From NCBI GenBank assembly GCA_004151065.3, contig NWUY0300067724.1:1-21919 (forward strand): 21,919 bases of DNA, read 5' to 3'. The stretch is from Larix sibirica. Lineage: Eukaryota > Streptophyta > Pinopsida > Pinales > Pinaceae. Of the stretch, positions 1 to 21,919 are shown piece by piece. The notes beneath the pieces are model-generated. The model searched no databases, had not been told where the DNA came from, and worked only from the letters and a program-made list of their open reading frames with translations. The stretch's first letter is position 1, and every line of letters starts with the position of its first letter. A program made the translations under genes and the position numbers.

Positions 1-390
1 TGCAGGTCACTTCCTTTTCCCAGGTGGCCTCATAACCCATCTTGGGGATGGCCTCTTAGTAGAAATAGTATATTATGGATAGAGTTCCTATGGTTGGATG
101 GAAAATCGCTCTTACACAACCAATTGCTCGGATCTTTTTTGTTTAAAGATCAATCTTCTCTTGTATTTTAATTTGCAACGTTTTTATTTGATGCCTGTGA
201 TTATTATGCTTGTATATGCATGCTATGTGTGTGTGGATAGAGTTTATTTCCATTGTGTATTTTTATTAATGAATATGTACATGCATTTGAGTATTTATGA
301 ATTCGTAATATGGCCATGGGAACAAATTTAGAATCCCATAATTCGATCATGTCCCCTCTACTGGTCAGATTGATGGATGGCGATGTGACA
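1..390 (-). mobile_element. LTR-like end of a second element family (minus strand, runs off window)
   Basis: Read on the minus strand from 390 downward, this begins TGTCACATCGCC and aligns over more than 200 bases with the plus-strand segment starting at 21687 (TGTAACGTCCC). The best conserved block is 181-250 against 21838-21906, including a shared AAATAAACTCTATCCACACA. Similarity stops at the TGT on both sides, which fits the 5' terminus of an LTR. The other end lies outside the window, so neither LTR length nor target duplication can be seen. No coding is evident. It could instead be the end of another repeat type. Confidence 0.55.
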
Positions 391-905: not shown

Positions 906-910
906 TGTCC
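906..910. repeat. Left target-site duplication TGTCC
   Basis: TGTCC lies directly before the first base of the 5' LTR and is repeated at 20211-20215 directly after the last base of the 3' LTR. The two copies sit exactly where similarity between the LTRs begins and ends, as expected for integrase-made 5-bp duplications. Confidence 0.85.
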
Positions 911-1140
911 TGTTGAAACTGCAACCACCCTCCCCAGTATTTTCTTTTGAAAAGACTAGGGCTTGTCCTTAAATTTTTCCTTTACCTATCTGAAACATTT
1001 GCATACCTCTTAAACTAAGTCAAGTACTGGAGTAATTTGGCATGTTCCCCAAAAAGAGAAAGTACTTAGCCAAATTTTTAAGTTTTCCTTAGTCAATCTT
1101 TTTCTATAAGTTTGCATTTTTTGGCGAGTTTTCCTAAGTT

Positions 1141-1700
1141 CCTCGAAACTTTTAGTGGGTCACCGAAACATCGGCTAAGATTTTGACTTCTCGCCGAAAC
1201 TTCGGTGAAGTTTTGGTTTTCACACCGAAATGTTGGCATAACTCAATATTTTCTGCCGAAAATTTTAAGAGATGTTGAAATTCCACCGAAACGTTAGAAT
1301 GATTTCTCCTAGTCTGAAAAAACATTTCTTTCACCGACGTGTCACTTAATTTTCTGGATAGTCGCTGAAACAATCGACATTTTCTTGTCTTTTCAGCGAA
1401 TTTGTCAATTTTGGCGCCAAAACATTTCGACAGACTTATCAATTTTGCACCAAAATGTATTGGTGGGACCTTTCGTTTTCTGTCAATATGGTCACAAAGA
1501 CTTGGTCCTTCCCGCGAAACTCAATATCGCAAAAGTTTTTAACTTTCCATCGAAACATATCATGGAAAATTGTATTTTAACACTGATACCATCACAGTGG
1601 CTTGAAACTCATCGCCAAAACATATTATTGCAGGGGAAATAAAACTCAACATTGAACCACGTTGGTCCAACTTTCCCTTTTACGCTGAAATGACTCGTTC
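1141..1700 (+). promoter_or_regulatory. Cluster of CCGAAA / CCGA-N4-TCGG motifs in the 5' LTR
   Basis: About sixteen variants of a CCGAAAC-like word recur every 30-40 bases. The clearest are near-palindromes, CCGAAACATCGG at 1163-1174 and CCGAAACTTCGG at 1194-1205. The same array occurs in the 3' LTR, where different members retain CpG, so losses look like independent CpG decay. The position about 0.75-1.3 kb before the LTR ORF fits an enhancer or promoter array; function is inferred. It could also be a degenerated tandem repeat with no regulatory role. Confidence 0.45.
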
Positions 1701-2434
1701 AAGTCTCAAAACCACATCATTTTCGCTGTTTAAATCCTCGGTTTGGATTTAGGGTTTTAAAGGACCTTTTAATACGAGGAACGTCATTTCCCCACCATAA
1801 TTGTTGTCATGTGAACCCATTCAATCCCACGCCAGTTGGAGAATATTCCTCACTCGGTACGCTCGAATCTACTACCAATCAATGTAGAACACCTGTCATT
1901 CATCATCTAGGTAGGTACACTTTTTCCTTGTTTCGTTGGTCTCAAACTGGTTAATCTCCACTTGGCAATTTGTAGTTGGAAGGAAATGGCCCATGATTGG
2001 TCTTACTGATCTCATAAATGACTGTTTTCCTTTTTTTTATTTGATTTTATTGGTTGTCTTTGTGTTTATTTGGACATAAGAGTTTCGAGCCACCTCACTT
2101 GTGTTGAATGACTTATGCCCTAGATCTCATTCCACACCTCTTTTTCCCAAATGAGTAGTCTTTTAAAGTTTTCTCTCGTTCCTGTTAAAACCCTACCTTA
2201 AACCCTAACTCCAAGAACGTGTCGATTTTACACAACCTTTTTTCAACTGACACGAGCCGTTACATTTTCCCTATTGTGAGATATCAAATGTGCAAATTCA
2301 TACCCTAAAGAATAAGCTAGGAAGTTTCCAGATTTAGTTGATGAACAATTCATTTATTCATATGAAAATAACTTGTTTATTCAGTGCAGATCTTTGTATT
2401 TGTTGCTTGTTTTTCTGAAATTGCATCTCATTTC
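1701..2434 (+). other. Leader-like segment before the LTR ORF
   Basis: No ORF of note. The segment is conserved with 15340-16080 in the 3' LTR. An AG|GTAGGT at about 1909-1915 and a TGCAG at 2383-2387 could delimit a 5'-leader intron in this copy, but the 3' LTR has lost both sites, so this is weak. Promoter and transcript start of the ORF should lie in or before this stretch. Confidence 0.3.
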
Positions 2435-5186
2435 ATGGTTTCAATGGAATTTACCCAAGATAATGCTGTTTCCACTGTCATATAGGATTGAAAAATGTCA
2501 AAAAGGGGTTCTAAGCGCTCCTCTAAAACCCTATTGGACATAACATCTGATGACGAACAAACTCAGGAAGCATCCTTGGTGTCTCAATTTGATGATACGC
2601 AACATATCACTAGAATTTCTCCTGAATTCAAATGGGGTGAGATTTACCATTTGATCAGAGACCGGAATGTCCTAGAAGCCACCATTGAAGAAGACTTGAT
2701 ATATCATAACATCAAAAGGTTAGGCATTCACAAGGCTGCAACCAGGCCTAAATTGTTTCCTTGTGCTGAAGTGATAGGGTGGGTCCTTCCCCATATTGAT
2801 ACTAAATCTTGTATCATTACCAACGCTACAGGGAAAGGTTTTGTTTCATTCCATCTAGTGCACATTGAGAAAGAATATAGACTTCTAGCTCCAAGAGAAT
2901 TTTTGACAGAAGAATGGCTCACAATCCTGAAACTAGATTATGCTAAATGTGCTAAGAAGATGCTGCTACCAGGAAAGCAGCTACGCCAAATAGACAACAG
3001 GTAATATGAAACTAAATTTTTGAAGACTCCTTTTAGGATTGCTACTACTCTTATATGTAGGCTTTTTGGGAATCCCAACTCAACTCATTACAAGCTTAGT
3101 TTGTTGCCTTTTCTTTATCATATTACCATGCATGGAACTATTTTTAATTTAGCATACATTATCTTTGAGAATATGTTTGAAGCAATCAAATATGCTCAAC
3201 ATGGCCTAAAAGTAAAGAAGGAATACTACAAGCAGATATGTGAAGAGTTCATGGCCCCCTTATAAAAATTGATATATGAAAAGGAGCAAGATTGTATGTT
3301 TGAATATGCTCTTGCAGTAGTCACTGAATTAGGGGATTTCTATCTGACCCCTAAATGCACATACTTGTGTATCTATGGAGGATCAAAGGGTCCATTTTTG
3401 TTACCCAAGTATGTCACAAATAGTATTATTTTGAAAGAAATTGTGAGGCAATCCTTTGTGAATGGCATTGGCCATTTTCTACATAATAAAAAAAATTATT
3501 CCTGGCCTCCACTTCATTTCATAGTCAGATCGTACAGATTGAACAATGTCAAAGATGTCCTGAACCTGATAAAGGATTTGGAATCCTTTCAATTTGGAGA
3601 GAATATTTTTGTAAGAAATGATAGTCATCAAAAGGTGGCCTTTCATTATGCATTTGTCAAAATCCACTACGAATATGTAGACCAATTTTTGAAGGAGGAA
3701 GAAGTATACAGACGGGTCCCAAGCCTCACAGAATTGGACAAAAGACTTAACAACAGAAAAGGGTTTAAGGATGCAAGCTCAAGCAAACCCGTAGATGCCT
3801 CAACATAAGAAAACTTGGAAGAAGTCGCTAGAAAGAAAGTTGTAGAAGAAGCCCTTCTCGCTGAAACAAGTAAAATATTGAAGGAGGTAGAGCTTGCCAG
3901 AAAGGCCAAAGAAGAAAGAAAAGCAAAAGAGGAAGTAGAAGAACAACAAAAGAGGATAGAAAAAGAAAAACTATATAAGCTTGCTGCAGAACAAGAAAAT
4001 AAAAGGCATGAGTTAACACAACAACAGGAATCGGCTTGGCAGGAAGAACTCCAAAGAAGAAGAAGAAGAAGAAGAAGAAGAAGAAGAATCTTTCAAGAAA
4101 GTTGTGGAAAATAAAGGTCAACAAGGAGATGAAGAAATGGGTAATTAAGGTCAAGATATAGAAATTGACACTACAATATACACCAACACGGAAGTTCCAC
4201 TCACTGGAGGGCATCTCCCTTTCGTTGAGTTAGGACTCGCCCCATTCACCCCCTCCAAACAGCATGTCGTGGCTAAGTTGGAGACTATTGTTTATGACTC
4301 GAAGAGAAAGGACATCATGAAATAGACGAAGAAGAGGCTTAGAATTGCCTCACAACATGATGTAGTTACAATACAGGAAGTCGTGGTGGTCAAACGTACC
4401 AATAAGGACCCGAGGTTCACAACATATGTTGGTGTAGCTACAACCCTATCCAATGAGGATAATGTACACAAAATGATAGATAATGTAGAAAGAAGCAAGG
4501 CGAATGTGGTTAAGCTTAAAGACAATCTAGTTCAAGCAAGGAATGAAGGAATTGAGCTAAGATGCCAGCAAGACACCCTTGAACTTCAAAAGGGAGAAGC
4601 CATGAACACCATTCAAAGTCGGCAAGTAGAAAGAGATTCACTTAATGTTCAGGTGGTAATATTGGAAGGAGAGAAGTCAAATTTGAAGTCCCAATTATGA
4701 GAAATGCAATAAAAGGAAATTCGATGGGATCAACATATAGAATATCTCACTATTGAAAAGGGATCCCTACAGGCTCAAGTAACAGAGCTTAATGAAGAAA
4801 AGGATTCATTGACAATTGCATTGAACACTTACCAAGAGCAGAAGAAGGATCTAACCCCATTTTATGATTGCACATATACCCTTCAGGAACAATTGTTCCA
4901 TTCACAGGAGATTCTCACAGAATATAAGTTTGAAGTACAGGGAATGGTGGCTAGACTCAAGCAAATATCTGAGACAACTATTGCCACTCGAAAAAAATTA
5001 AGAGATATTCATGACAAAATGAAGAAGCTGAATGCCCGGGAAAATGAAATCCCTCCCCATATGCCTAGGAGATCTACAGATGAATTGAGATTATATTTTT
5101 TAACTCTAGATAGTTTACAAAAGGATGAGAGGAAATTGCAAAGTGAGGTAGCAGCCTCTATTTCAAGATGTGAAGGGATACATTAG
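2435..5186 (+). pseudogene. LTR-embedded accessory ORF, copy 1 (globular domain plus coiled coil)
   Basis: The chosen start is ATG 2435, shared with the 3' LTR (MVSM-E/D-FTQDN). One frame runs from 2435 to 4114 and is broken only by stops at about 2483-2491, 3002, 3266 and 3806, none of which is in the other copy. Order of regions: Ser/Lys-rich and acidic N-terminus (about 1-60), a conserved mixed domain with GWVLPHIDTKS, LTEEWLTILKLDY, FVNGIGHFLHNKK and FVRNDSHQKVAFH, then from about 3815 a Glu/Lys/Gln-rich coiled coil, an AAG repeat, and a second coiled coil (4383-5186). A frame change lies near the AAG repeat. TAG at 5184-5186 is also in the other copy; coding-like sequence continues to a shared TGA at 5552-5554. 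I do not recognise the family. It resembles neither gag nor pol, and lies on the element's sense strand within probable U3. Confidence 0.75.
4054..4086. repeat. (AAG)11 repeat inside the LTR ORF
   Basis: Eleven AAG units; the 3' LTR has six at 17843-17860. In the upstream reading frame it gives an arginine run, in the downstream frame a glutamate run. The glutamate reading joins smoothly to the following coiled coil, so the ancestral protein probably had poly-Glu here and an indel has shifted the frame. Confidence 0.9.
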
Positions 5187-5554
5187 AATATATCTAAATC
5201 TTTCGAAAAATTCCATTTGACTTCTCATGTCCCATTTGAAAATCCTGTGCCGAAAGAGTAGAGATTGATTGAATTAAGAACTATTAAAGATGAATATATA
5301 GCTACCATTCGTAATCTAGAAAGTCTCACTCCAGAAGACCCGCATTAACGTATTGGGAAAACAATGTTGAAAACATAGTACTTGGAAAATGGGAATAGTA
5401 CAATGACCAAAGAACTTACTCCATTTGTCAAATACTTGTATTTCCTGAAGTGGCCTTATGGATGTTATTGCCACAACAGTTAAATGTTATATCTTATGAA
5501 AGCGGCATTTGGAATGAATATTTACAAACTCAAGAGGGTGCCCCACCCTCATGA
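5187..5554 (+). pseudogene. Possible C-terminal extension of the LTR ORF
   Basis: After the shared TAG both copies keep protein-like sequence: NPVPKE, IELRTIK, RNLESLTPED, then LKT followed by a second shared TAG (5376-5378), then YLENG. It ends at TCATGA, also shared. In the 3' copy one frame is continuous from 18952 to 19323 with only the two TAGs and one private TAA. A 1-base loss near 5450 shifts this copy. Either the donor element already had a shortened gene with a decaying tail, or the tail has another role. Confidence 0.4.
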
Positions 5555-5695
5555 TGTAATAATTTTATTTTCATTTTGTATATTTGTCCCCTTTATTCAA
5601 GTTGTAACTGAAATATGACAAAATTCCTGGAAGACAAAAGGTTGTAACTAGATGAAGGTGAAATGAAAATTCACCTAGGGGCTTGAGTAGAAAGG

Positions 5696-5703
5696 ATAAA
5701 TAG
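5696..5703 (+). promoter_or_regulatory. Candidate TATA box of the genomic RNA promoter
   Basis: ATAAATAG in a well conserved block (AAAGGATAAATAGAGGAAATG); the same box is at 19465-19472 in the 3' LTR. It lies about 800 bases before the LTR end and after the accessory ORF. If used, R would begin around 5725-5735, U5 would be about 0.77 kb, and the ORF would fall in U3. The sequence fit is good; use as a promoter is inferred. Confidence 0.4.
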
Positions 5704-6503
5704 AGGAAATGAGGGAAAGGAAGGGGCTTTTACTTTTAAGAAGATTTTTCCAAGACTCATATGCAATAATTATTCTGATAATGAACAAGGAAATTTTCTA
5801 GGTGGAAGCTTGCAATGGATATTGTGTCAAAATGTGTGGAAGAATGCGTGGAACTGATTTCCTCCTTTTGTCTATTAAAATTCCGTAAGATTGCTCTTGT
5901 TTCTGTTGGATTATTCTAATAGTTTATGGATTATTTTAGTGCATATGCAAGTGAAAACAGTTTTATTTTCTTTCTACGAGCAATGAATGTTAATACTCAA
6001 GTTATATAATGTGTTAACTTTATCTTGTAACTGTTAAATGTGTTTTATTTTTAGTGGTTATCTCCTCTAAAAGTGCAAGATGCAGTTTCCTTGCATTGCT
6101 CCCTTTTAATATCGCTCCTTTCAAGGATAGTTTAGTTTAATAGAATATTGCATTTAATTAGGGAATTCACTTGGGTGATCGATAGTAAGGGAAGTGATAA
6201 GACGAGAGGTAAGAACCTACGCATCACCGTGTGAGGATTCTTTCTATCGATTAAACAAGTACATATTAATGAGCATAAAATCTTGCATTTAGGATTAGTA
6301 GCTTGCATCTCATTTAACATCAATTAAAATCCTAAACGGTGGGTCGGGACGCATACGACAAATTTTATTCCAAGACTATCTTGAATGGTAGTTGGACCGT
6401 AAACCGGATGGGTTCCCTATTTCATATAGTGAAGGGTTTAATTGGGACTTTTCGTTGGGGAGAACCCCTATTGTCGATGCAAGGATTTTTCCAGGTGTTA
6501 ATA
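5704..6503 (+). other. Probable R/U5 part of the 5' LTR
   Basis: No ORF worth calling. The stretch is strongly conserved with 19473-20210, including a block around 5800-5880 (GGAAGCTTGCAATGGA) and another at 6290-6400. About 72 bases near 6408-6479 are missing from the 3' LTR. In the assumed layout this is the leader of the genomic RNA. Confidence 0.4.
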
Positions 6504-6530
6504 GATTTCGCACTAGAAGGAGGGCCGCCA
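6504..6530 (+). promoter_or_regulatory. Candidate primer-binding site region (degenerate)
   Basis: Directly after the 5' LTR is GATTTCGCACTAGAAGGAGG, followed by a GC-rich GCCGCC. A PBS should begin TGG within a few bases of the LTR; here that box is not intact and I cannot assign a tRNA. The call rests on position only. Confidence 0.25.
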
Positions 6531-8592: not shown

Positions 8593-9209
8593 ATTTTCAA
8601 TTATAACGTAGATAATTGTTTGGTGGATTGTGGAGAATATTCTAACATTATGTTGCTTTCTGTTTGTAACAAAATTAATGGACAACCTATCCCTTCTCCT
8701 TCTAGGATTATTCAACTTGATAGATCTGATGTTAAAGTGGTGGGAGAAATGAAGAATGTCCTAATCAGGCTGGCTTTAGATGAAAGGGTTTGTCAATTCA
8801 TTGATATTGTTGTAGTATATATACTGGAAGATTATGGTTTATTATTGATTAGAGATTGGTCAAGCAAACTAAATGGGTATTTATCTACTGATTGGTCCCA
8901 CTTGTGGCTGCCATATCAAAATAAGCAGAATCAAATAAGGGTAAACAAAGAGCCACACATGAAACTAAACATTACTGAGTTGGTAGGAGGAAATGAGCCC
9001 GTAAATTTTGTACATTCAGTATTGGGTAATTACTTTTTGGAAACTGAACCAAGTTGTTATCAAATAGAAACCACAAGTAATCTATCAGACAGACAGTCCG
9101 ATCTCCTTCAATTTTCATGGGATGATGATAATGATTGTAATATAATAGAGTTAAGTACTAATGTATATTTAGATGCTAATCTTGATTCCAGGAGTAGAGT
9201 AGGATGTGA
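8593..9209 (+). pseudogene. Retroviral-type aspartic protease (PR), broken
   Basis: The frame is open from 8593 to 9276. NCLVDCGEYSNIM carries the active-site loop, with Asp at 8626-8628; family members have D-S/T-G, here D-C-G. The flap and later strand regions follow (FIDIVVVYILEDYG), ending with LLLIRDWSSKLNGYLSTDWS, which matches the conserved GRDWL...DWS block of Tat-like proteases with G replaced by I. The protease processes the gag-pol polyprotein. A frame change near 9210 separates it from the next domain. The DCG loop and the lost Gly suggest loss of activity. Confidence 0.75.
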
Positions 9210-9761
9210 TTTTGGACTTTATGTGTTGATGGATCCAAAACAAAGGAGGGAGCAGGGGAAGGTTGTGTCTTTGTAGATCCTCAAAATAATAGAACCTTTC
9301 TCTCATGTAGATTAGAATTTGAATGCACCAATAACATAGTCGAGTATGAATCTCTGATTCAAGGGCTCAGGAAATCTATTGATTTAAATGTTAAAAATTT
9401 AAAGGTTTTTGTTGACTCAGAGATAATTGTTAAACATATTAGAAATACCATTTATTGTTTGTCTCCACACTTAAAATGGTACCAGGTATGGAATCTGATT
9501 TCAAATTTCGATGCTTTTAATATTAATTACATTCCTAGATCAAATAATGTTGTAGTTGATTTATTAGCTAATATTGCTTCTCATGTATCTCCCCTTCGTG
9601 ACAAATTTTCCATTGAATTGATTTTCAGGCCCTCTATCCCTAACACCATAACAAATTGGAGAGTATTTGATGATGATCAACATATTATAGACTTTTTAAC
9701 GGATGAAGATACATTCAAAAGTTCAATCATTGATGAAATAGAACACCAATCCAATTTTTAG
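9210..9761 (+). pseudogene. RNase H-like domain upstream of RT (aRNH/RVT_3 type)
   Basis: The frame from 9210 begins WTLCVDGSKTKEGAGEG. All four acidic positions of the RNase H fold are visible: Asp 9228-9230 (VDGSK), Glu 9342-9344 (IVEYESL), Asp 9414-9416 (VFVDSE) and Asp 9558-9560 (VVDLLAN). A further conserved stretch (SNFDAFNINYIPRSNN) precedes the last Asp. There is no stop inside the domain; the first is TAG at 9759. The same frame continues through a linker into RT, so the two belong to one ancestral polyprotein. Many Tat elements carry an extra archaeal-type RNase H; the order commonly described puts it after the RT-RNase H, so its place before RT is noteworthy. Confidence 0.8.
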
Positions 9762-10768
9762 AAGACATATGAAAATTAGTTTGGAGGAAATTTCATGCCC
9801 AAAGGGGTGCACACGCTTGAGAAGTTATTTGTTATGCAACATAAATTTAGAAAACTAGCGAATGTCAAAACAAATAGCTCTTCTATGCAATATGAGTTGG
9901 TAAATTTGGGCACTGAGAAAGAGCCAAAATATGTAAATCTTGGAACCTATTGTTCACTGGGTTAAAGACGCAAGTTTATTTATCCTTTCCATCAATATAA
10001 GGATGTATTTGCATGGAATTATGATGACTTGAAAACATATGATACAAGCATTATACAATATGTTATCTCTATCAAGAAAGGGGTTAAACCATTTCAGTAG
10101 AAAATTCAGAAAGTACATCCTACGCTGGAACCTCTAATCCAAAAGGAATTGAAGAAGTTGCTTGACGCTAAGATCATATTTAAGGTCAAACATTCAGCGT
10201 GGGTAGCTAATTTTGTGCCAGTATGGAAGACTTCTAGAGAAATATGATTATGTGTGGATTTCTGGAACTTGAATAGGGCATATGATAAAGACAATTATCC
10301 TATTCCTCCCATGGAGAAAATATTGCAGGTCGTCTCTGGTTCATAAATGTTCTATTTATTGGACGGGTTTTCCGGATACAACCAATTACTTGTGGCCAAA
10401 GAAGATCTCCTCAAAACTACTTTTCACACCAAATGGGGGACTTTTTCTTTTTGTAGAATGCCTTTTGGTTTGATGAATGTTGGAGCCACATTTCAAAGGG
10501 CCATGGACATTTCATTTCATGGTATGATTGGTCATAGTGTGGTTGTATACTTGGATGATGTCACACTGTTCTCCAAGAAAAGGGAAGATCATGTCTATCA
10601 TTTGAAACAGATTTTTGATCGATGTTGAAAATATAGTATTTCCCTTAACCCCAAGAAAAGTTTATTTGTTGTTTTTGAAGGAATATTGTTGGGACATATT
10701 ATTTCAAAAAAGGGAATATCAGTTAATCCTCAGAGAATACAACCCATTCTACAGATTACCATGCCTCA
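9762..10768 (+). pseudogene. pol: Reverse transcriptase, first part up to the N
   Basis: Same frame as the upstream RNase H. The linker includes VNLGTEKEPKYVNLGTY. RT follows from about 9966 (DVFAWNYDDLKTYD), with HPTLEPLIQKELKKLLDA, LCVDFWNLNRAYDKDNYP, LLDGFSGYNQ, FCRMPFGLMNVGATFQRAM and the catalytic YLDD at 10548-10559. Stops are at 9777, 9963, 10098, 10245, 10344 and 10626. The palm motifs are otherwise complete. It copies element RNA into cDNA. The thumb region is present twice around the N at 10769. Confidence 0.92.
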
Positions 10769-10985
10769 NGGATGATGTGACAGTGTTCTCAAAGAAAAGG
10801 GAAAATCATGTATTCCACTTGAAGCATATTTTCGATCGCTGCAGGAAGTATGGAATTTCTTTGAACCACAAGAAAAGTGTTTTCGCTGTTCTTGAAGGCA
10901 AGCTTTTGGATCTTGTCATTTCAAAGAAGGGAATCTCGATAGATCAGGATAGAGTGAAAGACATAAACAAGATTCCCATGCCCCA
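10553..10985 (+). repeat. Diverged 216-bp duplication joined by an N in RT
   Basis: 10553-10768 and 10770-10985 both encode the DDV..FSKKRE.HV.HLK.IFDRC to SKKGIS block. They are homologous but not identical: I count about 17 mismatches in the first 84 aligned bases. The N at 10769 sits exactly at the join, and the reading frame moves from frame 3 to frame 1. This looks like two contigs, perhaps from two element copies, laid end to end at a minimal gap. A genuine duplication is less likely. Confidence 0.75.
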
Positions 10986-11089
10986 CAACAAAAAATCTAT
11001 GCAATCATTTATGGGCACAATAAATTTTGTTCGCAGATTTGTCCCTGATTTTGGTCAAATCGTAAAATGACTGCAACAAATGATTAAAT
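10770..11089 (+). pseudogene. pol: Reverse transcriptase thumb/connection, second part
   Basis: Frame from 10770: FSKKRENHVFHLKHIFDRC, NHKKSVFAVLEG, ISKKGISIDQDRV, then MQSFMGTINFVRRFVPDFGQIVK, the conserved end of RT before RNase H. A TGA at 11068 breaks it. It contains only part of YLDD (DDV), since it begins just after the N. In frame with the following RNase H. Confidence 0.85.
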
Positions 11090-11643
11090 AGGACGTGCAA
11101 TTTAAGTGGATTGAATTAGAGAAAAATGATTTTCATAACATTAAAACTGCAATTTCTCATGCACCAGATTTGAGTAGTCCTGATTTCAAAAAGGACTTTA
11201 TCATTTATACATTTGCGTCCGATCATTCCCTTGCAGCAGTGCTCACTCAGAAAGGAGAGCAAGGGGACGAGTATCCAATAGCATTTATGAGCACTGGGTT
11301 ACAAGGGGTTGAAATGAACTATCCATATGTTGACAAACAAGCTTATGCAGTATTTAAAGTTGTAAAGCAGTTTGACAAACAAGCTTATGCAGTATTTAAA
11401 GCTGTAAAGCAGTTCATGCCCTACACTTTAAAAAACAAGACTAAAGTCATAGTACCTCACCCAATAGTTAGATCATTTTTTGTATACAAGGAGTTGGGAG
11501 AAAGATGTGGAAACTAGGTTATGGCGTTGCAAGAATATGATTTGGAATTCAAGCCCACTACTATAGTTAAGGGCCATGGATTTTGCAAACTGATTACTGA
11601 AAGTTTAGCTGAAGAGGCTAATGGATGGGATAATGAAGCATAA
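11090..11643 (+). pseudogene. pol: RT-linked RNase H domain
   Basis: The domain includes DFIIYTFASDHSLAAVLTQK (catalytic Asp region), YPIAFMS, and YPYVDKQAYAVFKVVKQF. Then comes an in-frame 14-residue repeat of the DKQAYAVFK block and MPYTLKNKTKVIV. After a TAG at 11515-11517 the family pattern continues as LQEYDLEFKPT, ending near 11643. Together with the domain at 9210-9761 this makes two RNase H domains in one element. It degrades RNA in the RNA:DNA hybrid. Inactive here through stops and the internal repeat. Confidence 0.85.
11332..11415 (+). repeat. 42-bp tandem duplication in RNase H
   Basis: Unit 11332-11373 is repeated at 11374-11415 and encodes DKQAYAVFKVVKQF then DKQAYAVFKAVKQF, one residue different. 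It is in frame. Family members have this block once, so the second is an insertion by replication slippage, old enough to have acquired a substitution, or another assembly effect. Confidence 0.9.
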
Positions 11644-13268
11644 ATGAACTTACTAGAAATTCATTCCACTAATACGGCCCCTGATTCTTGGTAGCGATAT
11701 TTGGTGCAATATTTACAGCATGGGTATGCCCCTGAAAATTTGAATTCAAAGCAAAGGAGAGCTCTCCGATTGAAATCAACATCATATCATATAATTGGTG
11801 GAGTGCTATTCTGAAGGAGTTCTGATGGAGTATTTATCAGGTGCTTAGAGAAGGAATATGTAGATAAGGTATTGAAAGAATTACATGATGGGCTTGCTGG
11901 AGGACATTATTCTAGAGATACTGCTGCTCACAAGATCGTTAAAGCAAGATATTATTGGCACAATGTTTTTAAATATGCTCATGCTTATGTCCAAAAATGC
12001 ATTGTATGTCAAAAGGGTGCCGGTAGGAAGATAAAACTAGCAGTGTCACTGCGACCAGTAATAATTTCATAACCATTTGAGCAGTGGGGCTTGGATGTTA
12101 TTNCAACATCATATCATATAATTGGTGGAGTGCTATTCTGAAGGAGTTCTGATGGAGTATTTATCAGGTGCTTAGAGAAGGAATATGTAGATAAGGTATT
12201 GAAAGAATTACATGATGGGCTTGCTGGAGGACATTATTCTAGAGATACTGCTGCTCACAAGATCGTTAAAGCAAGATATTATTGGCACAATGTTTTTAAA
12301 TATGCTCATGCTTATGTCCAAAAATGCATTGTATGTCAAAAGGGTGCCGGTAGGAAGATAAAACTAGCAGTGTCACTGCGACCAGTAATAATTTCATAAC
12401 CTTTTCAGCAGTGGGGCCTGGATTTTATTGGAGAAATAAATCCAAATTCTTACAACATCGTTATATTCTTACAACTACATATTATTTCACATGTTGGATT
12501 GAAGCTATCCCTCTTTGCAAGGCTAATGAAGATGTTGTCATCAAGTTTCTTTAAGAAAACATCATAACCATGTTTGGGGTTCCAATTGCCCTAGTTTTTA
12601 ATAACGCTTCCTATAGATCTTCTTTAAAGTTAAGTGAATTTGATATGGAAAGGGAAATTAAATTTCATTATTCTTCCAATCATTATCCCCAACGAAACAG
12701 GTTAAACGAATCTACAAATAAAAACCTCATCCACATACTTAAGAAAACTGATATTGAAAATCAAATAAATTGGCATGATGCTCTCCCAAACGCTTTGTGG
12801 GATGATATGGTCACACCAAATAATTATTTAGGGGTTTCTCCTTACACTCTAGTTTATGTAAAAGAAGCTATTGTTCCTCCTAACATTTTGTTTCCTTCAC
12901 TCCAGTTAGCCCAAGCCTCTAGAGGAACCAATAGCTGTGCTATACAAGAAAGAATTAACACCCTACTCAAACTCAAAGAGGAAAGAGAAAAGGCCAAAAA
13001 TAAATTTACCACTCATCAATTTAGTGTCAAGATATGGTTTAATAAAAGTAGGGAAGGGAAGAAATAATTTGAAATCGGTGACCTAATCCTGAAGTGGGAT
13101 CAACCTCACGAAGAAAAGGGAAAGCATACAAAATTTCAACATTTATGGCTTGGTCCTTACACTATCACTGAGAAACTTGGCCCAGGAACTTATAGATTAC
13201 AAAATTTGGAAGGGGAAGTGGAAAATATTCCCGTGTATAGCCAATATTTAAAGCAGTACTTCACTTAG
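11644..13268 (+). pseudogene. pol: Integrase (HHCC finger, DDE core, C-terminal domain), broken
   Basis: The HHCC zinc finger is at 12193-12400 (ELHDGLAGGHYSRDTAAHK ... CIVCQK) and is duplicated at 11872-12072. The core starts with QWGLDFIG (Asp 12421-12423). Frameshifts follow between 12430 and 12570, where the text reads partly as TCWIEAIPLCKANEDV. From 12570: MFGVPIALVFNNASY, with Asn at 12600-12602 where the second catalytic Asp is expected. Then RLNESTNKNLIHILKK contains the catalytic Glu (12708-12710). The C-terminus (KFQHLWLGPYTITEKLGPGTY, ending LKQYFT) closes at TAG 13266-13268. Stops include 12552, 13065 and others. It joins cDNA to host DNA and makes the 5-bp duplication. Confidence 0.88.
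11777..12429 (+). repeat. Near-identical 326-bp duplication joined by an N in integrase
   Basis: 11777-12102 and 12104-12429 align at a constant offset of 327. They are essentially identical except for a few mismatches in the last 30 bases (for example CATTTGA versus CTTTTCA). The N at 12103 separates them. Clustered mismatches just before the N resemble a low-quality contig end, so I read this as an unresolved contig overlap and not a real tandem copy. Confidence 0.8.
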
Positions 13269-14547
13269 TCTAGGAAGATCACTTATGTACATAAATAAAA
13301 AAATTCTTTGTTGTTTCGCCCTTTTATCTTTTGATTACTTTGTTTTGGCCTAGTTGTTATTTTAATAAAACTAGTTATTTGATTCCCTGTTTTAAGATTT
13401 TAATAAAATTGAGTTAAGAAATCAGATTACTTGGTGGGAATGCTTTGATCTCATTAATTATGCAATATCTCTTTAAGTTGATTAATTCCTTTAAAACCTC
13501 TGGTGTGTGAGAAATACTTTGAAGTTTAAGTTTCTTCTTACTAGGAAGAGTCAGTGATGCATTTTCAAGCACTATCACTTGAAAGGATTTCAACTTGTCT
13601 ATCTTTGTTCTATTTATTTGGTTACTCGGAAAACTTATCACATGATCAGGATAAAACTAAAATGTATTATATCCTGTATATTTTGTTGGGATAAAGACTT
13701 CTAAGTTACTATCTTGAGGCCCCACCCCATTGAAACACATTCATAACCATGTCTTGAAATTGTCTACTTATGGATGACCCATGGGAAGGAAGCAAGATAT
13801 TGCATATGCATAGCAAATCAAATTGATCCTATACTTGATATAATTCCCTAAATGCTCAATAAAACCAACTCTTCTCCATTTTAAGACATCCATAGCAAAT
13901 GAAGATGGATATCTGAAGAATCAAACGAAGACATGAACATATGAAATGAAATGTTCAAATAAGATCAATAGGATATCCCAAATATCATTCCAAGGGGGAT
14001 TTTATCCATTTGTGGGAACATTACATACAATAAAATATTATTCATCACCCACACAGAGGGACACTATGGATGGAAGAGCCTAGAATATTGCCTCTAATGA
14101 AATAGGGAAACTTTCTTACTAACGCTGGTAAAGCATCAAAAAATTATAATGCATCAAATAAATGCATATGGTATAGGAATGAGGAACACACATTTACATC
14201 TTCCTGGTTTTGTTACTTACCCCATGGTGTCTTACCTAATTTACAGTGGAAGGACTAGTTTGGTAAATGAACCTCATAAATTGACCTTGAGAGAGTGGCT
14301 ATGAAGTCACAACTAAGCTACCCTTTCCCTTAAAACATATCTTCATAATGTTTGATCACTGTGTTATATTTTTTTGATATAAAACCAAAATTGAGCTCAA
14401 TGTAATACAAATAAATGATACCAAGACTCTTACAACAAGTAGTGACTTGTAAACAAAGTAGATCTTCACTACATCTTAAATTTTCATAAACTATAAGAGA
14501 TCCTTTTATTTTATCAGAGATCTAAGTTCTCTAGGTTTTTCACCAAT
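13269..14547. other. Non-coding 3' internal region, no polypurine tract seen
   Basis: About 1.28 kb between the end of pol and the 3' LTR. It is AT-rich and full of stops in all frames; the short minus frame near 13414-13641 shows no domain. The bases just before the 3' LTR (CTCTAGGTTTTTCACCAAT) are pyrimidine-rich, not the purine tract that should prime plus-strand DNA. A short purine run (GGGAAGGAAGCAAG near 13783) is too far away. The segment may hold a nested insertion or a long untranslated region typical of large Tat elements. Confidence 0.5.
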
Positions 14548-14778
14548 TGCTGCAACTGCAACCACCCTCCCTAGTGTTCTATTTTGAAAAGACTAGGGCC
14601 CCTCCTTAAATTTGGCCTTTACCTATCTGAAACAGTTGGATCCCTCTTAAACTAAGTCAGGTACAACATGAAGTTGGCACGTTCCCAAAAAAGAGAAAGT
14701 ACTTAGCCAAAATTTTAAGTTTTCCTTAATCCTTCTTTTTTTGTAAGTTTTCATGTTTCATCAAGTTTTCCTAAGTTC

Positions 14779-15330
14779 ACTGAAACATCACAAAAAAATT
14801 TAGTGGGTCGCCGAAACATCGACTAAGATTTTGAATTCTCACCAAAACTTCGGCGAAGTTCAGGTTTTCGTGCCGAAACGTTGGTGTAAGTCAACGTTTT
14901 CTACCGAAAATTTGGAGAGATGTTGAAATTATGCCGAAATGTCGGAATGATTTCTCCTAGTTTGACAAAACATTTCTTTCGTCGAAGTGTCTCTTAATTT
15001 TCCGAATAGTTTCCGAAATAGTCGGTGTTTTCTCGTCTTTTTGGTGAACTTGTCAATTTTGGTGCTGAAACGTTTCGACAGACTTATCAATTTTGCGCCG
15101 AAATGTATCAGTGGGACCTTTGGTTTTCTGTCGATACGATCTTAAAGACTTGGTCCTTCCTGCCGAAACTCAACATCGTAAAATTTTGTAACCTTCCATT
15201 TAAACATAACAGGGAAAATTGCAGTTTAACGCTGATACCATCGCAGTGGCTTGAAACTCATCATTGAAACATATTATCGCGTGGGAAATAAAAATCAACG
15301 TCGAAACACGTCGGGCCAACTCGCTCTTTT
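14779..15330 (+). promoter_or_regulatory. CCGAAA / CCGA-N4-TCGG motif cluster in the 3' LTR
   Basis: Counterpart of 1141-1700. Clear members are CCGAAACATCGA at 14811-14822 and CCGAAATGTCGG at 14934-14945, with more at roughly 14873, 14904, 15014, 15098 and 15162. Several sites here keep CpG where the 5' copy has TpG or CpA and the reverse, so the ancestral array was more regular than either copy. Confidence 0.45.
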
Positions 15331-16869
15331 ACGCTAAAATGACTCGTTCAAGTCACAAAAGCATGCCATTTCTTTCGTTTAAAGCCTCGGTTGGGACTTA
15401 GGGTTTTAAAGGGCCTTTTAATACAAGGAACGTTGTTTCCCCCCATCATTGTTGTCACGTGAACCTTTCGATCCCGCGCTAGTTGGGCAAGATTCCTCAC
15501 TTGGTACACTCACATATTCTACCAATCAATATAGCACATTTATCATTCATCATCCAGTTAGGTACACTTTTTCCCTATTTGGTTGGTCTCAAACTAGTTA
15601 ATCTCCACTTGACAATTTGTAGTTAGAGGGTAGTGGCCCATGATTGGTCTTACTGGTCTCATACTTAACCATTTTCCTTTTTTTTATTTGATTTTATTGG
15701 TTGTCTTTGCATTTATTTGGACCCAAGGGTTTCGAGCCACCTCACTTATGTTGAAGGACTTATGCCCTAAATCTCAGTCTACGCCTTTTTTTCCCAAATG
15801 AGCAATCTTTTGAAGTTTTCTCTCGTTCCCGTTAAAACCCTACCTTAAACCTAACTCCAAGAACGCGTCAATTTTCCACACCCTTGTTTCAATTGCAACG
15901 AGCCATTACATTTTACCTATTGTGAGATAGCAAATGCACCGATGCATACCTTAATGAATAAACTAGGAAGTTTATAGATTTAGTTGATGGACAATTCATT
16001 TATTCATATGAAAATAACTTGTTTATTTAGTAAAGATCTTTGTAGTTGTTGCTCGTTTTTCCAAAATTGCATCCCATTTCATGGTTTCAATGGACTTTAC
16101 CCAAGATAATGATGTTTCCACTGTCATACAGGATTCAGAAATGTTGAAAAGAGGTTCTAAGTGCTCCTCTAAAACCGTATTGGAGATAGCATATGATGAC
16201 GAGCCAACTCAAGAAGCATCCTTGGAGGCTCAGTTTGACGATACACAACATATCATGGGAATTTCTCCTTAATTCAAATGAGGTGATATTTACCATTTGA
16301 TCAAAGACTAGAATGTCCTAGAAGCCACCATCGAAGAAGACTTGATATAATAGAACATCAAAAGGTCAGGCATTCAGAAGGCTGCAACCATGCCTAAATT
16401 GTTTCCTTGTACTAAAGTGATAGGATGGGTCCTTCCCCATATTGATACTAAATCTCGTATCAACACCAGCACTATAGGGAAAGGTTTTGATTCATTCCAT
16501 CCGGTGTAGATCGGGAAAACATATAGATTTCTAGCTATGATAGTATTTTTGACAGAAGAATGGCTCACAAGCCTGAAACTGGATTACGCTGAGTGTTCTA
16601 AGAAGATGTTGCTACCAGGAAAGCAGCCGTGCTAAAGGGACAATGGGGAATATGAAACTAAATTTTTGAAGACTCCTTTTAGGATTGTTGCTACTCTTAT
16701 ATGCAGGATCTATGGGAGGCCCAACTCAACTCGTTACAAGCTCAGTTGGGTGCCTTTGCTTGATCATATTACCATGCATGGCACTGTTTTTGATTAGGAA
16801 GACATTATCTCTGAGAATATGTTCCAAGAAATCAAATATGCTCAACAGGGCCTCAAATTAAATAAGGAA

Positions 16870-17007
16870 TAATTTCATATGTCTTCTTATTTGGTGGAGT
16901 GTATCATGACATTGCATCCCTTTCCCGGTATCAGATGTATATGGAATCCTAATGAATCTCCTATTTATGTTGCCTATCAAATTTTTTGGGCTCAAAAGCA
17001 TGCAAAC
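16870..17007 (+). other. 46-codon segment of the LTR ORF missing from the 5' LTR
   Basis: Here GAA is followed by 138 bases before TACTACAAG; in the 5' LTR GAA 3221-3223 is followed directly by TACTACAAG. The length is a multiple of three, so the 5' copy lost it without a frameshift, or the ORF exists in two forms. The segment begins with a TAA in this copy, and otherwise reads as good protein. Confidence 0.8.
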
Positions 17008-17842
17008 TACTACAAGCATATATGAGAAGAGTTCGTGGTCCCCTTATACAAATTGATATATGAGAAGGAGCTAGATTGCATGTCTGAATATGCTCTTGCA
17101 GTAGTCACTAAATTAGGGGATTTCTATCTAACACTTGAAGGCACATACTTGCGTATCTATGGAGGATCAAAGGGTACATTTGTGTTACCCAAGTATGTCA
17201 CATTTTGTATTATTTTGAAATAAATTGTGAGGAAAACCTTTGTGAATGGCATTGGCCATTTCCTACATAATAACAAAAGATATTTATGGCCTCCATTTCC
17301 ATTGATAGTCGGATCATATAGATTGAACAAGGTAAAATATGTCCCGTACCTCATAAAGGATTTGGACTACTTTCACTTTGGCGAGAATATTTTTGTAAGA
17401 AATGATAGTCATCAAAAGGTGGCGTTGCATTGCGCACCTGTCAAAATCCACTACGAATATGCAGACCAATTTTTGAAGGAGGAATAAGTATACAGACGGG
17501 TCCCAAACCTTGTAGAATTGGACAAAATATTTAACAAAAGAAAAGGGGTTAAGGAGGCAAACTAAAGCAAACCAACATATGCCTCAACACAAGAAAAATT
17601 GGAAGAAGTCGCTAGAAATAAAGCTGTAGAAGAATCCCTCTTGGTTGAAACAAGTAAAATATAGCAGGAGGAAGAGCTAGCCAGAAAGGCTAAAGAATAA
17701 ATTAAAGCAAGAGAGGAAGAGGAATAACTATAGAATAGGATAAAAAAGAAACACTAGATAATATTGCTATAGAATAAGAAAATAAAAGGCCTAAGTTAAC
17801 ACAACAACAGGAATAAGCTCGGCAGGAAGAAATCAAAAAAAA

Positions 17843-17860
17843 AAGAAGAAGAAGAAGAAG
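17843..17860. repeat. (AAG)6 repeat, counterpart of 4054-4086
   Basis: Six AAG units against eleven in the 5' LTR, preceded by a ten-base A run absent there. Repeat length has changed since insertion. Confidence 0.9.
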
Positions 17861-18954
17861 AATTGAAGAAAGTTGTGAAAATAAAGGTCAACAAGGAGAT
17901 GAAGAAATGGGTAATGAAGGTCAAGACATAGAAAATGACTCTACAATAGAAACCAACATGGAAGTTCCACTCACTGGAGGGATTATCCCTTTCCCTGAGT
18001 TAGGACTCACCCCCTCTAAACAACATGTCGTGGATAAGTTGGAGACTATTGTTTATGACTCAAAGAGAAAGACCATCATGAAAAAGACGTAGAAGAGGTT
18101 TAAAATTTCCTCACAACCTGACATAGTTACAATACAATAAGTCTCGGTGGTCGAAGGTACCAATAGGGACCCGAAGTTCACAACATTTGTTGGTGTAGCT
18201 GCATCCCTAGCCAATGAGGATAATGCACACAAACTGATAGAGAATGTAGAAAGAAGCAAGGCTAAAGTACTTAATCTTAAAGAAAATCCGATTCAAGCAA
18301 GGAATGAAGGAATTCATATAAGACGCTAGTGGGACACCATTGAAATTCAAAAGGGAGAAGCCATGAACACCATTAAAATTTTAGAAGTATAAGGAGATTC
18401 ACTTAATGTTCATGTGGTAATATTGGAAGAGAGAAGACATATTTGAAGTCGCAATTACGAGAAATGCAATCAAAGTAAAGTCGATGTGATCAACAGATAA
18501 ATATCTCACTATTGAAAAGGGATCCCCGCAGGCTCAAGTAGCAGAGCTTAATCGAGAGAAGGATTCGTTGACAATTGCATTGAGCATTTACCAAGAGAAA
18601 ACACAGGATCTAAACCAGTTTTATGATTGCACATCTACCTTGAGGAACAATTGTTCCATTCACAAGAGCTACTCACAGAAAAAAACATTTGAAGTATAGG
18701 GAACGGTGTCTAGACTCAAGCAAATATCCGAGATAGCTACTGCCACTCGACATAAATTAGGAGATATTCATGACAAAATAAAGAAGTTGACTGCCTAGAG
18801 AAAGAAATCAAAGGATATCCATCCTCATCTTCCTAGGAGTTCTACAGATGAATTGAGATTAGATTTTGCAACTCTGGAGAGTTGCAAAAAGGATGAGAGG
18901 AAATGGATAAGTGAGGTAGCAGCCTCTATTTCAAGATGTGAAGAGATACATTAG

Positions 18955-19323
18955 AATATAGCCAAATATTTTGAAAATTTTCATTTTCCTTCTCCTATCC
19001 CATTTGAAAACCCTGTACCGAAAGAGAAAAGATTGATTGAATTGAGAACTATTAAACATGAAGATAAAGCTTCCATTCGTAATCTGGAAAGTCTCACTCC
19101 AGAAGACATGCATGAATGTATTGGGAAAGCAACATTGAAAACATAGTACTTGGAAAATGGGCATAGTACATCGACCAAAGGCCTTACTGCATTGGTCAAA
19201 GACTTGTATTTTCATGAAGTGGCTTTACAGGTGTTGGAGCCACAACAGTTAAATGTTATATCTTATGAAAGTGTTCTTTGGAATTAATATTTACAAAATC
19301 AAGAGGGTGCCCCACTCTCATGA
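18955..19323 (+). pseudogene. Possible C-terminal extension of ORF copy 2
   Basis: Same frame as the shared TAG at 18952: NIAKYFENFHFP, NPVPKEKRLIELRTIK, NLESLTPEDMHECIGKATLKT, the second shared TAG (19144-19146), then YLENGHSTSTK and EPQQLNVISYES, a private TAA near 19286, and the shared TGA at 19321-19323. The frame is otherwise uninterrupted for 370 bases in an otherwise decayed LTR. Confidence 0.4.
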
Positions 19324-19464
19324 TGTAATAATTTTATTTTATTTTTGTAATTGTGTCCCCTTTATTCAAGTTGTAGCTAAAATATGACAAAATTCCTATA
19401 AGACAAAATGTTGTAACTAAATGAAGGTGAATTGAAAAGTCACCTAGGGGGTTGAGTAGAAAGG

Positions 19465-19472
19465 ATAAATAG
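19465..19472 (+). promoter_or_regulatory. Candidate TATA box, 3' LTR copy
   Basis: ATAAATAG, identical to 5696-5703 and within a conserved block. In the 3' LTR it would fire into flanking DNA. Confidence 0.35.
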
Positions 19473-20210
19473 AGGAAATGAAGGAACGGAAGGGGATTTT
19501 ACTTTTAAGAATATTTTGTTGAGACTCATCCGTAAGAAATATTGTTGATAATGAACAAGGTAATTTTCTGGGTGGAAGCTTGCAATGGAGACTGTGTCAA
19601 AATGTGTGGATGAATGCATGGAACTGATTTCCTCCTTTTGTCTATTAAAATGCAGTAAGATTGTTCTTGTTTCTATTGGATTATTCAAATGGTTTCTGTA
19701 TTATTTTAGTACATATGCAAGTGAACACAATTTTCTTTACTTTCTATGGGCAATGAATGTGATGAATGTTAATACTCAAGTTATCTAATGTGTTAACTTC
19801 TTCTTGTAACTGTTAAATGTGTTTTATTTTCAGTGGTTATCTCCTGTAAAAGTGCATGATGTAGTTGTCTTGTGTTGCTCCCTTTTAATCTTGCTCCTTG
19901 CAAGGATAATTTAGTTTAATAGAATATTGCATTTGATTAGGGCATTCACTTAGGTGACTGACAATAAGGGAAGTGATAAGACGGGAGTTAACAACCTATG
20001 CATCATTGTGTAAGGCTTATTTCTATAAGTTAAACAAGTACATATTAGTGAGTATAAACTTTTTCATTTAGTATTAGTAGCCCACATCTCATTTAACATC
20101 AATTAAAATCCTAAACAGTGGGTTGGGCCTCATCCGACAAATTTTATTCCAAGACGATCCTAAACGGTAGCTGGACCATAAACTGGCAAGGATTTTTCCA
20201 AGAGTCAACA

Positions 20211-20215
20211 TGTCC
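20211..20215. repeat. Right target-site duplication TGTCC
   Basis: Directly follows the final CA of the 3' LTR and matches 906-910. Confidence 0.85.
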
Positions 20216-21686: not shown

Positions 21687-21919
21687 TGTAACGTCCCTAT
21701 CCCTCAATCCGACCGGTTGAAGGGGAAATTAAATAGATTCGGGCTTCTAAATTTCACCCCATGGCCATATTATGAATCCATAATAATTAAAATGGAAATG
21801 GAAATACATGTGGAGATGAAAAATAAAATACATAGCAGAAATAAACTCTATCCACACACATCTGCATGCATATACCAGCATAATCATTACATGCATCAAT
21901 TAAAAACATTGCACATTCA
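21687..21919 (+). mobile_element. LTR-like start of the second family (plus strand, runs off window)
   Basis: Begins TGTAACGTCCCTATCCCTC, a typical plant LTR terminus, and aligns with the minus strand of 390 down to about 166. Shared blocks include GGCCATATTA, AAATAAACTCTATCCACACA and GCATGCATATAC. The orientation is opposite to the left copy. The remainder lies outside the window. Confidence 0.55.

What the first reader, a model, noticed from the sequence alone, without database searches (positions are those of the whole stretch)
2435..5554. A long non-gag-pol gene carried inside the LTRs of a retrotransposon
Seen: both 5.6-kb direct repeats contain the same sense-strand ORF of roughly 1000 codons, with a globular N-terminal domain and a long coiled-coil C-terminus, in the part that should be U3. 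Known: plant LTRs normally hold no protein gene. Extra ORFs in Ogre-type elements lie in the internal region, and the sag gene of mouse mammary tumour virus is a rare LTR-encoded case. Inferred: because every reverse transcription copies the LTR twice, the element doubles this gene at each insertion. It may be an accessory factor or a captured host gene. I cannot tell whether the family is already described.
Basis: partly seen in the sequence, partly recalled or inferred. Interest (0 to 1): 0.88.

Follow-up and report, generated by a model that had tools for sequence, protein, structure and literature searches.

The report
Conserved gene inside retrotransposon end repeats
A family of plant jumping genes, probably from a gymnosperm, carries a third, roughly 1,080-codon gene inside its long end repeats, and substitutions show it was kept as a working protein gene although both copies in this stretch are now broken.

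Summary
The repeats are true LTRs (911-6503, 14548-20210) with a 5-bp target duplication, TGTCC, and an internal region with PBS, two RNase H domains, RT and integrase. The gene (about 2435-5554; 16081-19323) is in both, but neither copy is open: the longest stop-free pieces are 180 and 91 codons. It was nevertheless a real gene. Between this element's two LTRs changes ignore codon position (ratio 1.06; dN/dS 0.84). Against 12 other copies third positions change 1.4-2.4 times more (dN/dS 0.17-0.46); against six sister-family LTRs the ratio is 2.1-2.5. Non-coding LTR controls give 0.75-1.27. The gene was listed upstream of the LTR end in 10 of 16 5' LTRs and downstream of the internal region at 14-15 of 21 3' junctions. 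RNase H between protease and RT points to Tat elements of gymnosperms (TatII) or club-mosses (TatI). The longest open relative found matches no Pfam family. I read it as an accessory gene of the 3' (env-position) kind that lies in U3, comparable in place to MMTV sag. Function is unknown; U3 placement and expression are inferred. No polypurine tract adjoins the 3' LTR. Literature searches here listed no such case, but the library lacks most subscription papers.

The parts
906..910 (.). target-site duplication TGTCC, left copy
   Evidence: same five bases follow the 3' LTR at 20211-20215
911..6503 (+). 5' LTR (TGTTG ... TGTTAATA; CATCAACA in other copies)
911..2434 (+). non-coding leader part of the LTR; no codon periodicity in 8 of 9 comparisons; in the one sister LTR fetched with its leader (C9315) only the first 36 bp align
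2435..5554 (+). LTR gene, 5' copy, broken by in-frame stops and at least one frame change; lacks 138 bp
5555..6503 (+). LTR trailer, alignable in two sister LTRs (C9716, C7830), not in C9315
5695..5703 (+). TATA-like GATAAATAG, proposed promoter of the full-length RNA
   Evidence: GATAAATAG in 6 and GATAAA in 9 of the 9 copies that have the region; function inferred
6204..6215 (+). splice-donor-like GAGAG/GTAAGAA
   Evidence: GGTAAG in 6 of 10 copies, among them sister C9716; also in C7830; function inferred
6504..6525 (+). primer-binding-site region (TTTGGCACTAGAAGGAGGG in related elements)
   Evidence: primer tRNA not identified
8593..9273 (+). protease region, by position (no Pfam match)
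   Evidence: inferred
9210..9758 (+). RNase H domain (PF13456) between protease and RT: the additional RNase H (aRH) of Tat elements
   Evidence: E 2.3e-17
10347..11067 (+). reverse transcriptase, broken
11092..11514 (+). RNase H of the RT (PF17919/PF17917)
11815..13265 (+). integrase, with a 327-bp tandem duplication at 11776-12429
14548..20210 (+). 3' LTR
16081..19323 (+). LTR gene, 3' copy, more broken, with the 138 bp (about 16871-17008)
20211..20215 (.). target-site duplication TGTCC, right copy

Best explanation
This is a degenerate Ty3/gypsy element of the Tat kind whose third gene, a sense-strand accessory ORF of about 1,080 codons, lies inside the LTR, most likely in U3. Shown: it is in the LTRs of many elements of several related families, and it evolved under purifying selection while those elements were spreading. 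Inferred: a promoter downstream of the gene starts the full-length RNA, so that RNA carries the gene once, near its 3' end after pol, where Athila-type elements carry their 3' accessory (env-position) ORF. Second-strand synthesis starts upstream of the gene and makes it part of U3, so each insertion gains two copies and a solo LTR keeps one. The protein would be made from its own LTR transcript (leader promoter) or from a spliced RNA, and would act as an accessory or structural factor in the element's cycle. Its biochemical function is not known.
For: LTR status: TSD TGTCC and matching ends. A solo LTR with GATGG on both sides (C6823; it holds an internal partial duplication) also carries the gene. 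Coding and selection: ratio 1.06 for the LTR pair; 1.39-2.35 for 12 of 12 other copies; 2.12-2.51 for 6 of 6 sister LTRs; dN/dS 0.84; 0.17-0.46; 0.10-0.11 in the 3 of 6 sisters with estimable dS; shifted frames 0.66-1.64; non-coding controls 0.75-1.27, 1 of 17 at p<0.05; pol 1.27-1.44. Position: (gene upstream of 10 of 16 LTR ends joined to PBS/gag, and downstream of 15 of 21 3' junctions, of which one, C6127:13938, is really the next LTR's gene). In the sister LTR C9315 the gene aligns with the window while the leader beyond 36 bp does not. A third family (about 64% in pol) has it at 31-39% amino-acid identity upstream of its LTR end. U3: TATA-like box downstream of the gene, also in one sister.
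Against: No RNA data. No polypurine tract adjoins the 3' LTR in window, C707, C9315 or the 10 of 11 further junction pieces that hold internal sequence, so how second-strand synthesis starts is unexplained. Most copies are broken (4 of 119 matched stretches without a stop), so present-day function is doubtful. No protein family or fold was identified. The open relative on C12907 (40% identity) could not be placed in an LTR. At 6 of 21 junctions, 6 of 16 5' LTR ends and 4 of 24 other ends no gene was listed; the gene searches scored only the best candidates. One sister (C11975) has the gene only 387 bp from the LTR start.
Confidence: 0.72

Rival explanations
1. The repeats are not LTRs but tandem units, and the gene is an ordinary internal 3' accessory ORF next to a short LTR.
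For: No polypurine tract at 14548; a purine-rich run just after the gene at about 5703-5728 would suit a short LTR.
Against: TSD TGTCC outside both repeats; shared terminal sequences in several elements; solo LTR with GATGG on both sides; PBS directly after the 5' repeat; CCAAT followed by the LTR start in 13 of 13 junctions.
Confidence: 0.05
2. The frame is a captured host gene, carried passively.
For: Captured genes are known in plant elements (review PMC7264820, passages).
Against: Selection between elements and families; 119 related places scored out of 1,185 candidates, and no protein family matched the open relative. A host ancestor is not excluded: most candidates were neither scored nor looked at.
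Confidence: 0.1
3. The gene is a true homologue of the Athila 3' ORF (Transposase_32 PF20167 / Athila ORF1), shifted into U3.
For: Weak PF20167 match of window 3005-3262 (16.9 bits, E 0.006); a sunflower Athila 3' ORF has PF20167 (PMC11728184, passages).
Against: Below the Pfam cut-off of 45 bits; 2 of 10 natural pieces match at E<=1 and 1 of 10; the open 344-aa piece P0001 does not, nor the open 532-aa relative at E<=5.
Confidence: 0.3
4. The gene lies in R or U5, not U3, and is the first cistron of the full-length RNA.
For: The transcription start was not mapped.
Against: The TATA-like box and donor-like site are downstream of the gene, and the leader differs more than the trailer between copies.
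Confidence: 0.2

Closest known systems
Tat elements with additional RNase H upstream of RT (TatI of club-mosses, TatII of gymnosperms; PMC6317226)
   Same: order protease - aRH - RT - RNase H - integrase; 5-bp TSD; very long LTRs
   Different: the paper sorts extra ORFs as lying 5' or 3' of the polyprotein and does not, in the passages read, describe a gene inside the LTR
Athila / sunflower Athila 3' accessory ORF (PF20167, PF03078)
   Same: sense orientation, downstream of pol on the RNA
   Different: lies between pol and the 3' LTR; sequence relation to this gene only weak
Ogre and Retand extra ORFs (plant mobile domain PF10536; Transposase_28 PF04195)
   Same: large non-canonical ORF in elements with long LTRs
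   Different: those domains were not detected here; location differs
Retrosat2 ORF0 (rice, LTRs > 3.2 kb; PMC3485330)
   Same: extra ORF of unknown origin in an element with very long LTRs
   Different: ORF0 lies upstream of gag-pol; chromovirus (Tekay) type
MMTV sag (recalled)
   Same: accessory gene inside U3, doubled at each insertion
   Different: animal retrovirus superantigen; no sequence relation claimed

Membership tests
LTR retrotransposon, Ty3/gypsy | LTR pair with TG..CA-type ends and target duplication | tested here: met
   TSD TGTCC; the 5' LTR of this element ends in a mutated TGTTAATA
LTR retrotransposon, Ty3/gypsy | RT before RNase H before integrase | tested here: met
LTR retrotransposon, Ty3/gypsy | polypurine tract directly before the 3' LTR | tested here: not met
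   CCAAT in 13 of 13 junctions (GTCRCCAAT in 8), no purine run
Tat (TatI/TatII type) | additional RNase H between protease and RT | tested here: met
   (PF13456 at 9210-9758); class definition from PMC6317226; protease assigned by position
Tat (TatI/TatII type) | RT/integrase phylogeny within Tat | not tested
   no reference set of Tat RT sequences at hand
Tat (TatI/TatII type) | characteristic primer tRNA | not tested
   PBS TTTGGCACTAGAAGGAGGG seen, tRNA not identified
Transposase_32 / Athila ORF1 | Pfam match above cut-off | tested here: not met
   best 16.9 bits against cut-off 45; PF03078 not listed
Plant mobile domain (Ogre ORF) / Transposase_28 (Retand ORF) | PF10536 or PF04195 match | tested here: not met
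   neither listed
U3-encoded accessory gene (works like MMTV sag) | gene between the 5' edge of the LTR and the transcription start | tested here: inconclusive
   gene inside LTR shown; start site only inferred
U3-encoded accessory gene (works like MMTV sag) | expressed from a subgenomic RNA | not testable with these tools
   no RNA data

The most novel reading that the evidence does not exclude
A whole branch of gymnosperm Tat retrotransposons has moved its third gene into U3 and kept it there under selection through the radiation of several families. Solo LTRs are then stand-alone copies of this gene that could supply the protein to other elements after gag-pol is lost. The same elements lack a polypurine tract at the U3 edge, so second-strand DNA synthesis may start by another means, and that change may be what let the gene become part of the LTR.
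Probability: 0.4. Interest if true: 0.85.

Novelty: new variant of a known kind. Interest (0 to 1): 0.68.

Why it matters
Plant LTRs are usually treated as regulatory, non-coding sequence. If a large selected gene sits there, solo LTRs remain coding, gene counts and copy-number ratios of such elements mislead, and the role of plant accessory ORFs, an open question, becomes testable with one conserved family. The missing polypurine tract raises a separate question about replication.

Tried and rejected
Intron idea for the 138 bp missing from the 5' copy: rejected, because the stretch continues the reading frame and is a multiple of three. Inverted primer-binding site at the 3' junction as a tRNA primer site: not supported; of three junctions tested one beat its shuffles (181 of 20,000 reach it), the others did not (3,646 and 9,089), and a junction motif from related elements has no match in the window itself within 3 mismatches. 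A splice acceptor just before ATG 2495: dropped, since the frame starts upstream at 2435/2444 and the acceptor is not shared. C7830 as a complete sister element: the left copy is truncated and not followed by the PBS, so it is not called a pair. PDB searches gave one chance-level row each (E 0.68 and 0.49). NCBIfam gave none, Rfam none. A PF20167 scan of the genome did not complete.

Full report
The window is one whole contig (C12671) of a 618-Mb assembly. Its two long direct repeats are the LTRs of one element. The left copy starts TGTTG at 911 after ...TGTCC. The right copy ends ...GTCAACA at 20210 before TGTCC. A 5-bp target duplication outside both, with shared terminal sequences, is the mark of integrase. 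Other copies share the ends TGTTGCAAC... and ...CATCAACA, with point changes, and the copy at C6823 is a solo LTR (with an internal partial duplication) flanked by GATGG on both sides. After the 5' LTR comes a primer-binding-site region, TTTGGCACTAGAAGGAGGG in C2839, C8005 and C14869. The two LTRs differ at 13.8% of 5,492 sites (K2P 0.154). With a conifer rate near 2.2e-9 per site and year, which is recalled and comes from no call, this would be some 35 million years.

The internal region holds reverse transcriptase, its RNase H, integrase pieces and, at 9210-9758, a further RNase H domain (PF13456, E 2.3e-17) before the RT. The protease is assigned by position; Pfam gave no match. Neumann et al. 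2019 (PMC6317226; section 13 read and other passages seen) state that this order marks TatI of club-mosses and TatII of gymnosperms. The 2023 survey PMC10508981 (passages) found the same order in gymnosperms, most abundant there apart from two Gnetophyta, and in three club-mosses.

The gene. The frame is not open in either LTR: the longest stop-free pieces are 180 codons (3266-3805) and 91 codons. The 5' copy lacks 138 bp that continue the frame in the 3' copy. So the claim of an ORF of about 1000 codons holds for the coding region, not for an intact frame.

Was it ever a gene? I did not build a consensus; that step was left out. Instead I compared natural copies by codon position, taking window 2495-4050 and 4326-5183 as reference frame. 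Between the two LTRs of this element, which have evolved since insertion, the third-position ratio is 1.06 (p=0.64). Against 12 other copies of the family it is 1.39-2.35 (all p<7e-4). Against six LTRs of sister families it is 2.12-2.51 (all p<6e-18). dN/dS is 0.84 for the pair and 0.17-0.46 for the 12. It is 0.10-0.11 for three sisters and not estimable, with saturated dS, for the other three. Shifted frames give 0.66-1.64. Non-coding LTR parts, read in one arbitrary frame, give 0.75-1.27, with 1 of 17 estimates below p=0.05 (C891 leader, p=0.018), and pol gives 1.27-1.44 in four comparisons, two of which (C2839, C8005) are the same to three digits. The 12 copies come from 10 contigs near the top's list. 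Fetched but left out of this count: C14869, which reads almost like C8005; the second copies in C4612 and C6823; the N-terminal piece C5579:64588; and C17129 (L008), whose scores equal those of C17155. Many places were not fetched. The six sisters were chosen because they hold the 3' junction.

Is it in the LTR elsewhere? I took 21 places with internal sequence running towards the 3' LTR start (the internal-side rows; the other rows lie in the LTR or are second pieces) and 40 LTR ends (all rows but one second piece of the same C11681 end). These were set against gene matches. Gene downstream of the LTR start: 15 of 21, or 14 if C6127:13938 is set aside, because the gene found there belongs to the next LTR. 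Gene upstream of an LTR end that is joined to PBS and gag: 10 of 16. Gene upstream of an end that stops there or earlier: 20 of 24. The misses are not shown absences, since only the best candidates are scored. LTR start-to-end spans of 5.7-6.0 kb were found in C2295, C10107 and C5382. In the sister C9315 only the gene and the first 36 bp of the fetched LTR align with the window, apart from the internal region before it; its trailer does not align. The trailer does align in C9716 and C7830. A still more distant family on C707 (64% in pol) has the gene at 31-39% amino-acid identity upstream of its LTR end. A protein search of the genome gave 119 matches from 1,185 first candidates (117 scored), 38-100% identical, four of them without a stop in the matched stretch.

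What is the protein? Window piece 3005-3262 matches Transposase_32 (PF20167) weakly: 16.9 bits, cut-off 45. This was the only lead to a known accessory-ORF family: a sunflower Athila 3' ORF carries PF20167, related to Athila ORF1 (PMC11728184, passages). But the longest natural open relative that I fetched, 532 aa on C12907, matches no Pfam family at E<=5, the open 344-aa piece P0001 does not match PF20167 either, and the other scans add nothing. I treat homology to Athila ORF1 as possible, not shown. The last long piece (4713-5183) is heptad-like; the middle piece 3809-4070 is rich in charged residues but not periodic.

How it may work (inferred). In the trailer, a TATA-like box, GATAAATAG at 5695-5703, is kept exactly in 6 of the 9 aligned copies that have the region, one of them the sister C9716, and as GATAAA in all 9. 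A donor-like GGTAAG at 6208-6213 is kept in 6 of 10 copies, again with C9716, and in C7830. If the box starts the full-length RNA, the gene is in U3, appears once on that RNA, after pol, and is doubled by each insertion. That is the position of a 3' accessory ORF in Athila-type elements, with one difference: the start of the second DNA strand lies upstream of the gene. At that point a polypurine tract is expected, but none is there. Window, C707, C9315 and ten further junctions have CCAAT before the LTR start in 13 of 13 (GTCRCCAAT in 8 of 13); an eleventh fetched piece (C14182) holds only the LTR side. A resemblance to an inverted primer-binding site was not significant for two of three junctions.

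Comparison with print. Vicient and Casacuberta 2020 (PMC7264820, abstract and passages) describe additional ORFs in the internal region; the passages seen mention none in LTRs. Neumann et al. sort extra ORFs by side and orientation. Retrosat2 ORF0 lies upstream of gag-pol (PMC3485330, abstract and passages). Passages of PMC11963269, PMC6431247 and PMC2633040 were also seen and show no LTR-located gene. Searches worded for ORFs or genes in LTRs and for gymnosperm or Tat elements and extra ORFs listed no such case by title and abstract start; two searches showed 20 of 98 and 20 of 130 papers. The library lacks most subscription papers, among them Steinbauerova et al. 2011, so earlier description cannot be ruled out. 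MMTV sag is recalled as the known U3 gene.

Verdict: the location and the past selection are well supported. U3 placement, expression route and function are inferred. It is a new variant of the known accessory-ORF theme in Tat-type elements.

Noticed in passing
window 14530-14550 and the junctions L030-L039, C707, C9315: No polypurine tract next to the 3' LTR; CCAAT stands before the LTR start in 13 of 13 junctions (GTCRCCAAT in 8).
   Followed up: partly
window 13990-14001: A short G-rich run (CCAAGGGGGATT) about 550 bp before the 3' LTR could be a displaced or internal polypurine tract; its conservation was not tested.
   Followed up: no
window 11776-12429; 10553-10982; 11330-11414: Tandem duplications inside pol (327 bp at 98%, 217 bp at 74%, 42 bp at 97%).
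   Followed up: no
window 170-390 and 21687-21917: Inverted copies (76%) of another repeat flank the element on both sides.
   Followed up: no
window 5885-6053: Possible small intron in the LTR trailer, GTAAGAT ... TTTTCAG/TGG; GTAAG is kept in 7 of 10 aligned copies, including sister C9716.
   Followed up: partly
C2839, C8005, C14502 against the window: The LTR gene differs more at third positions (0.28-0.33) than pol (0.16-0.18), which hints at exchange between LTRs and internal parts of different subfamilies.
   Followed up: no
L051 (C12907:1306-2904, minus strand): A 532-aa open frame, about 40% identical to the LTR gene product, without any Pfam match; its setting could not be assigned.
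   Followed up: partly
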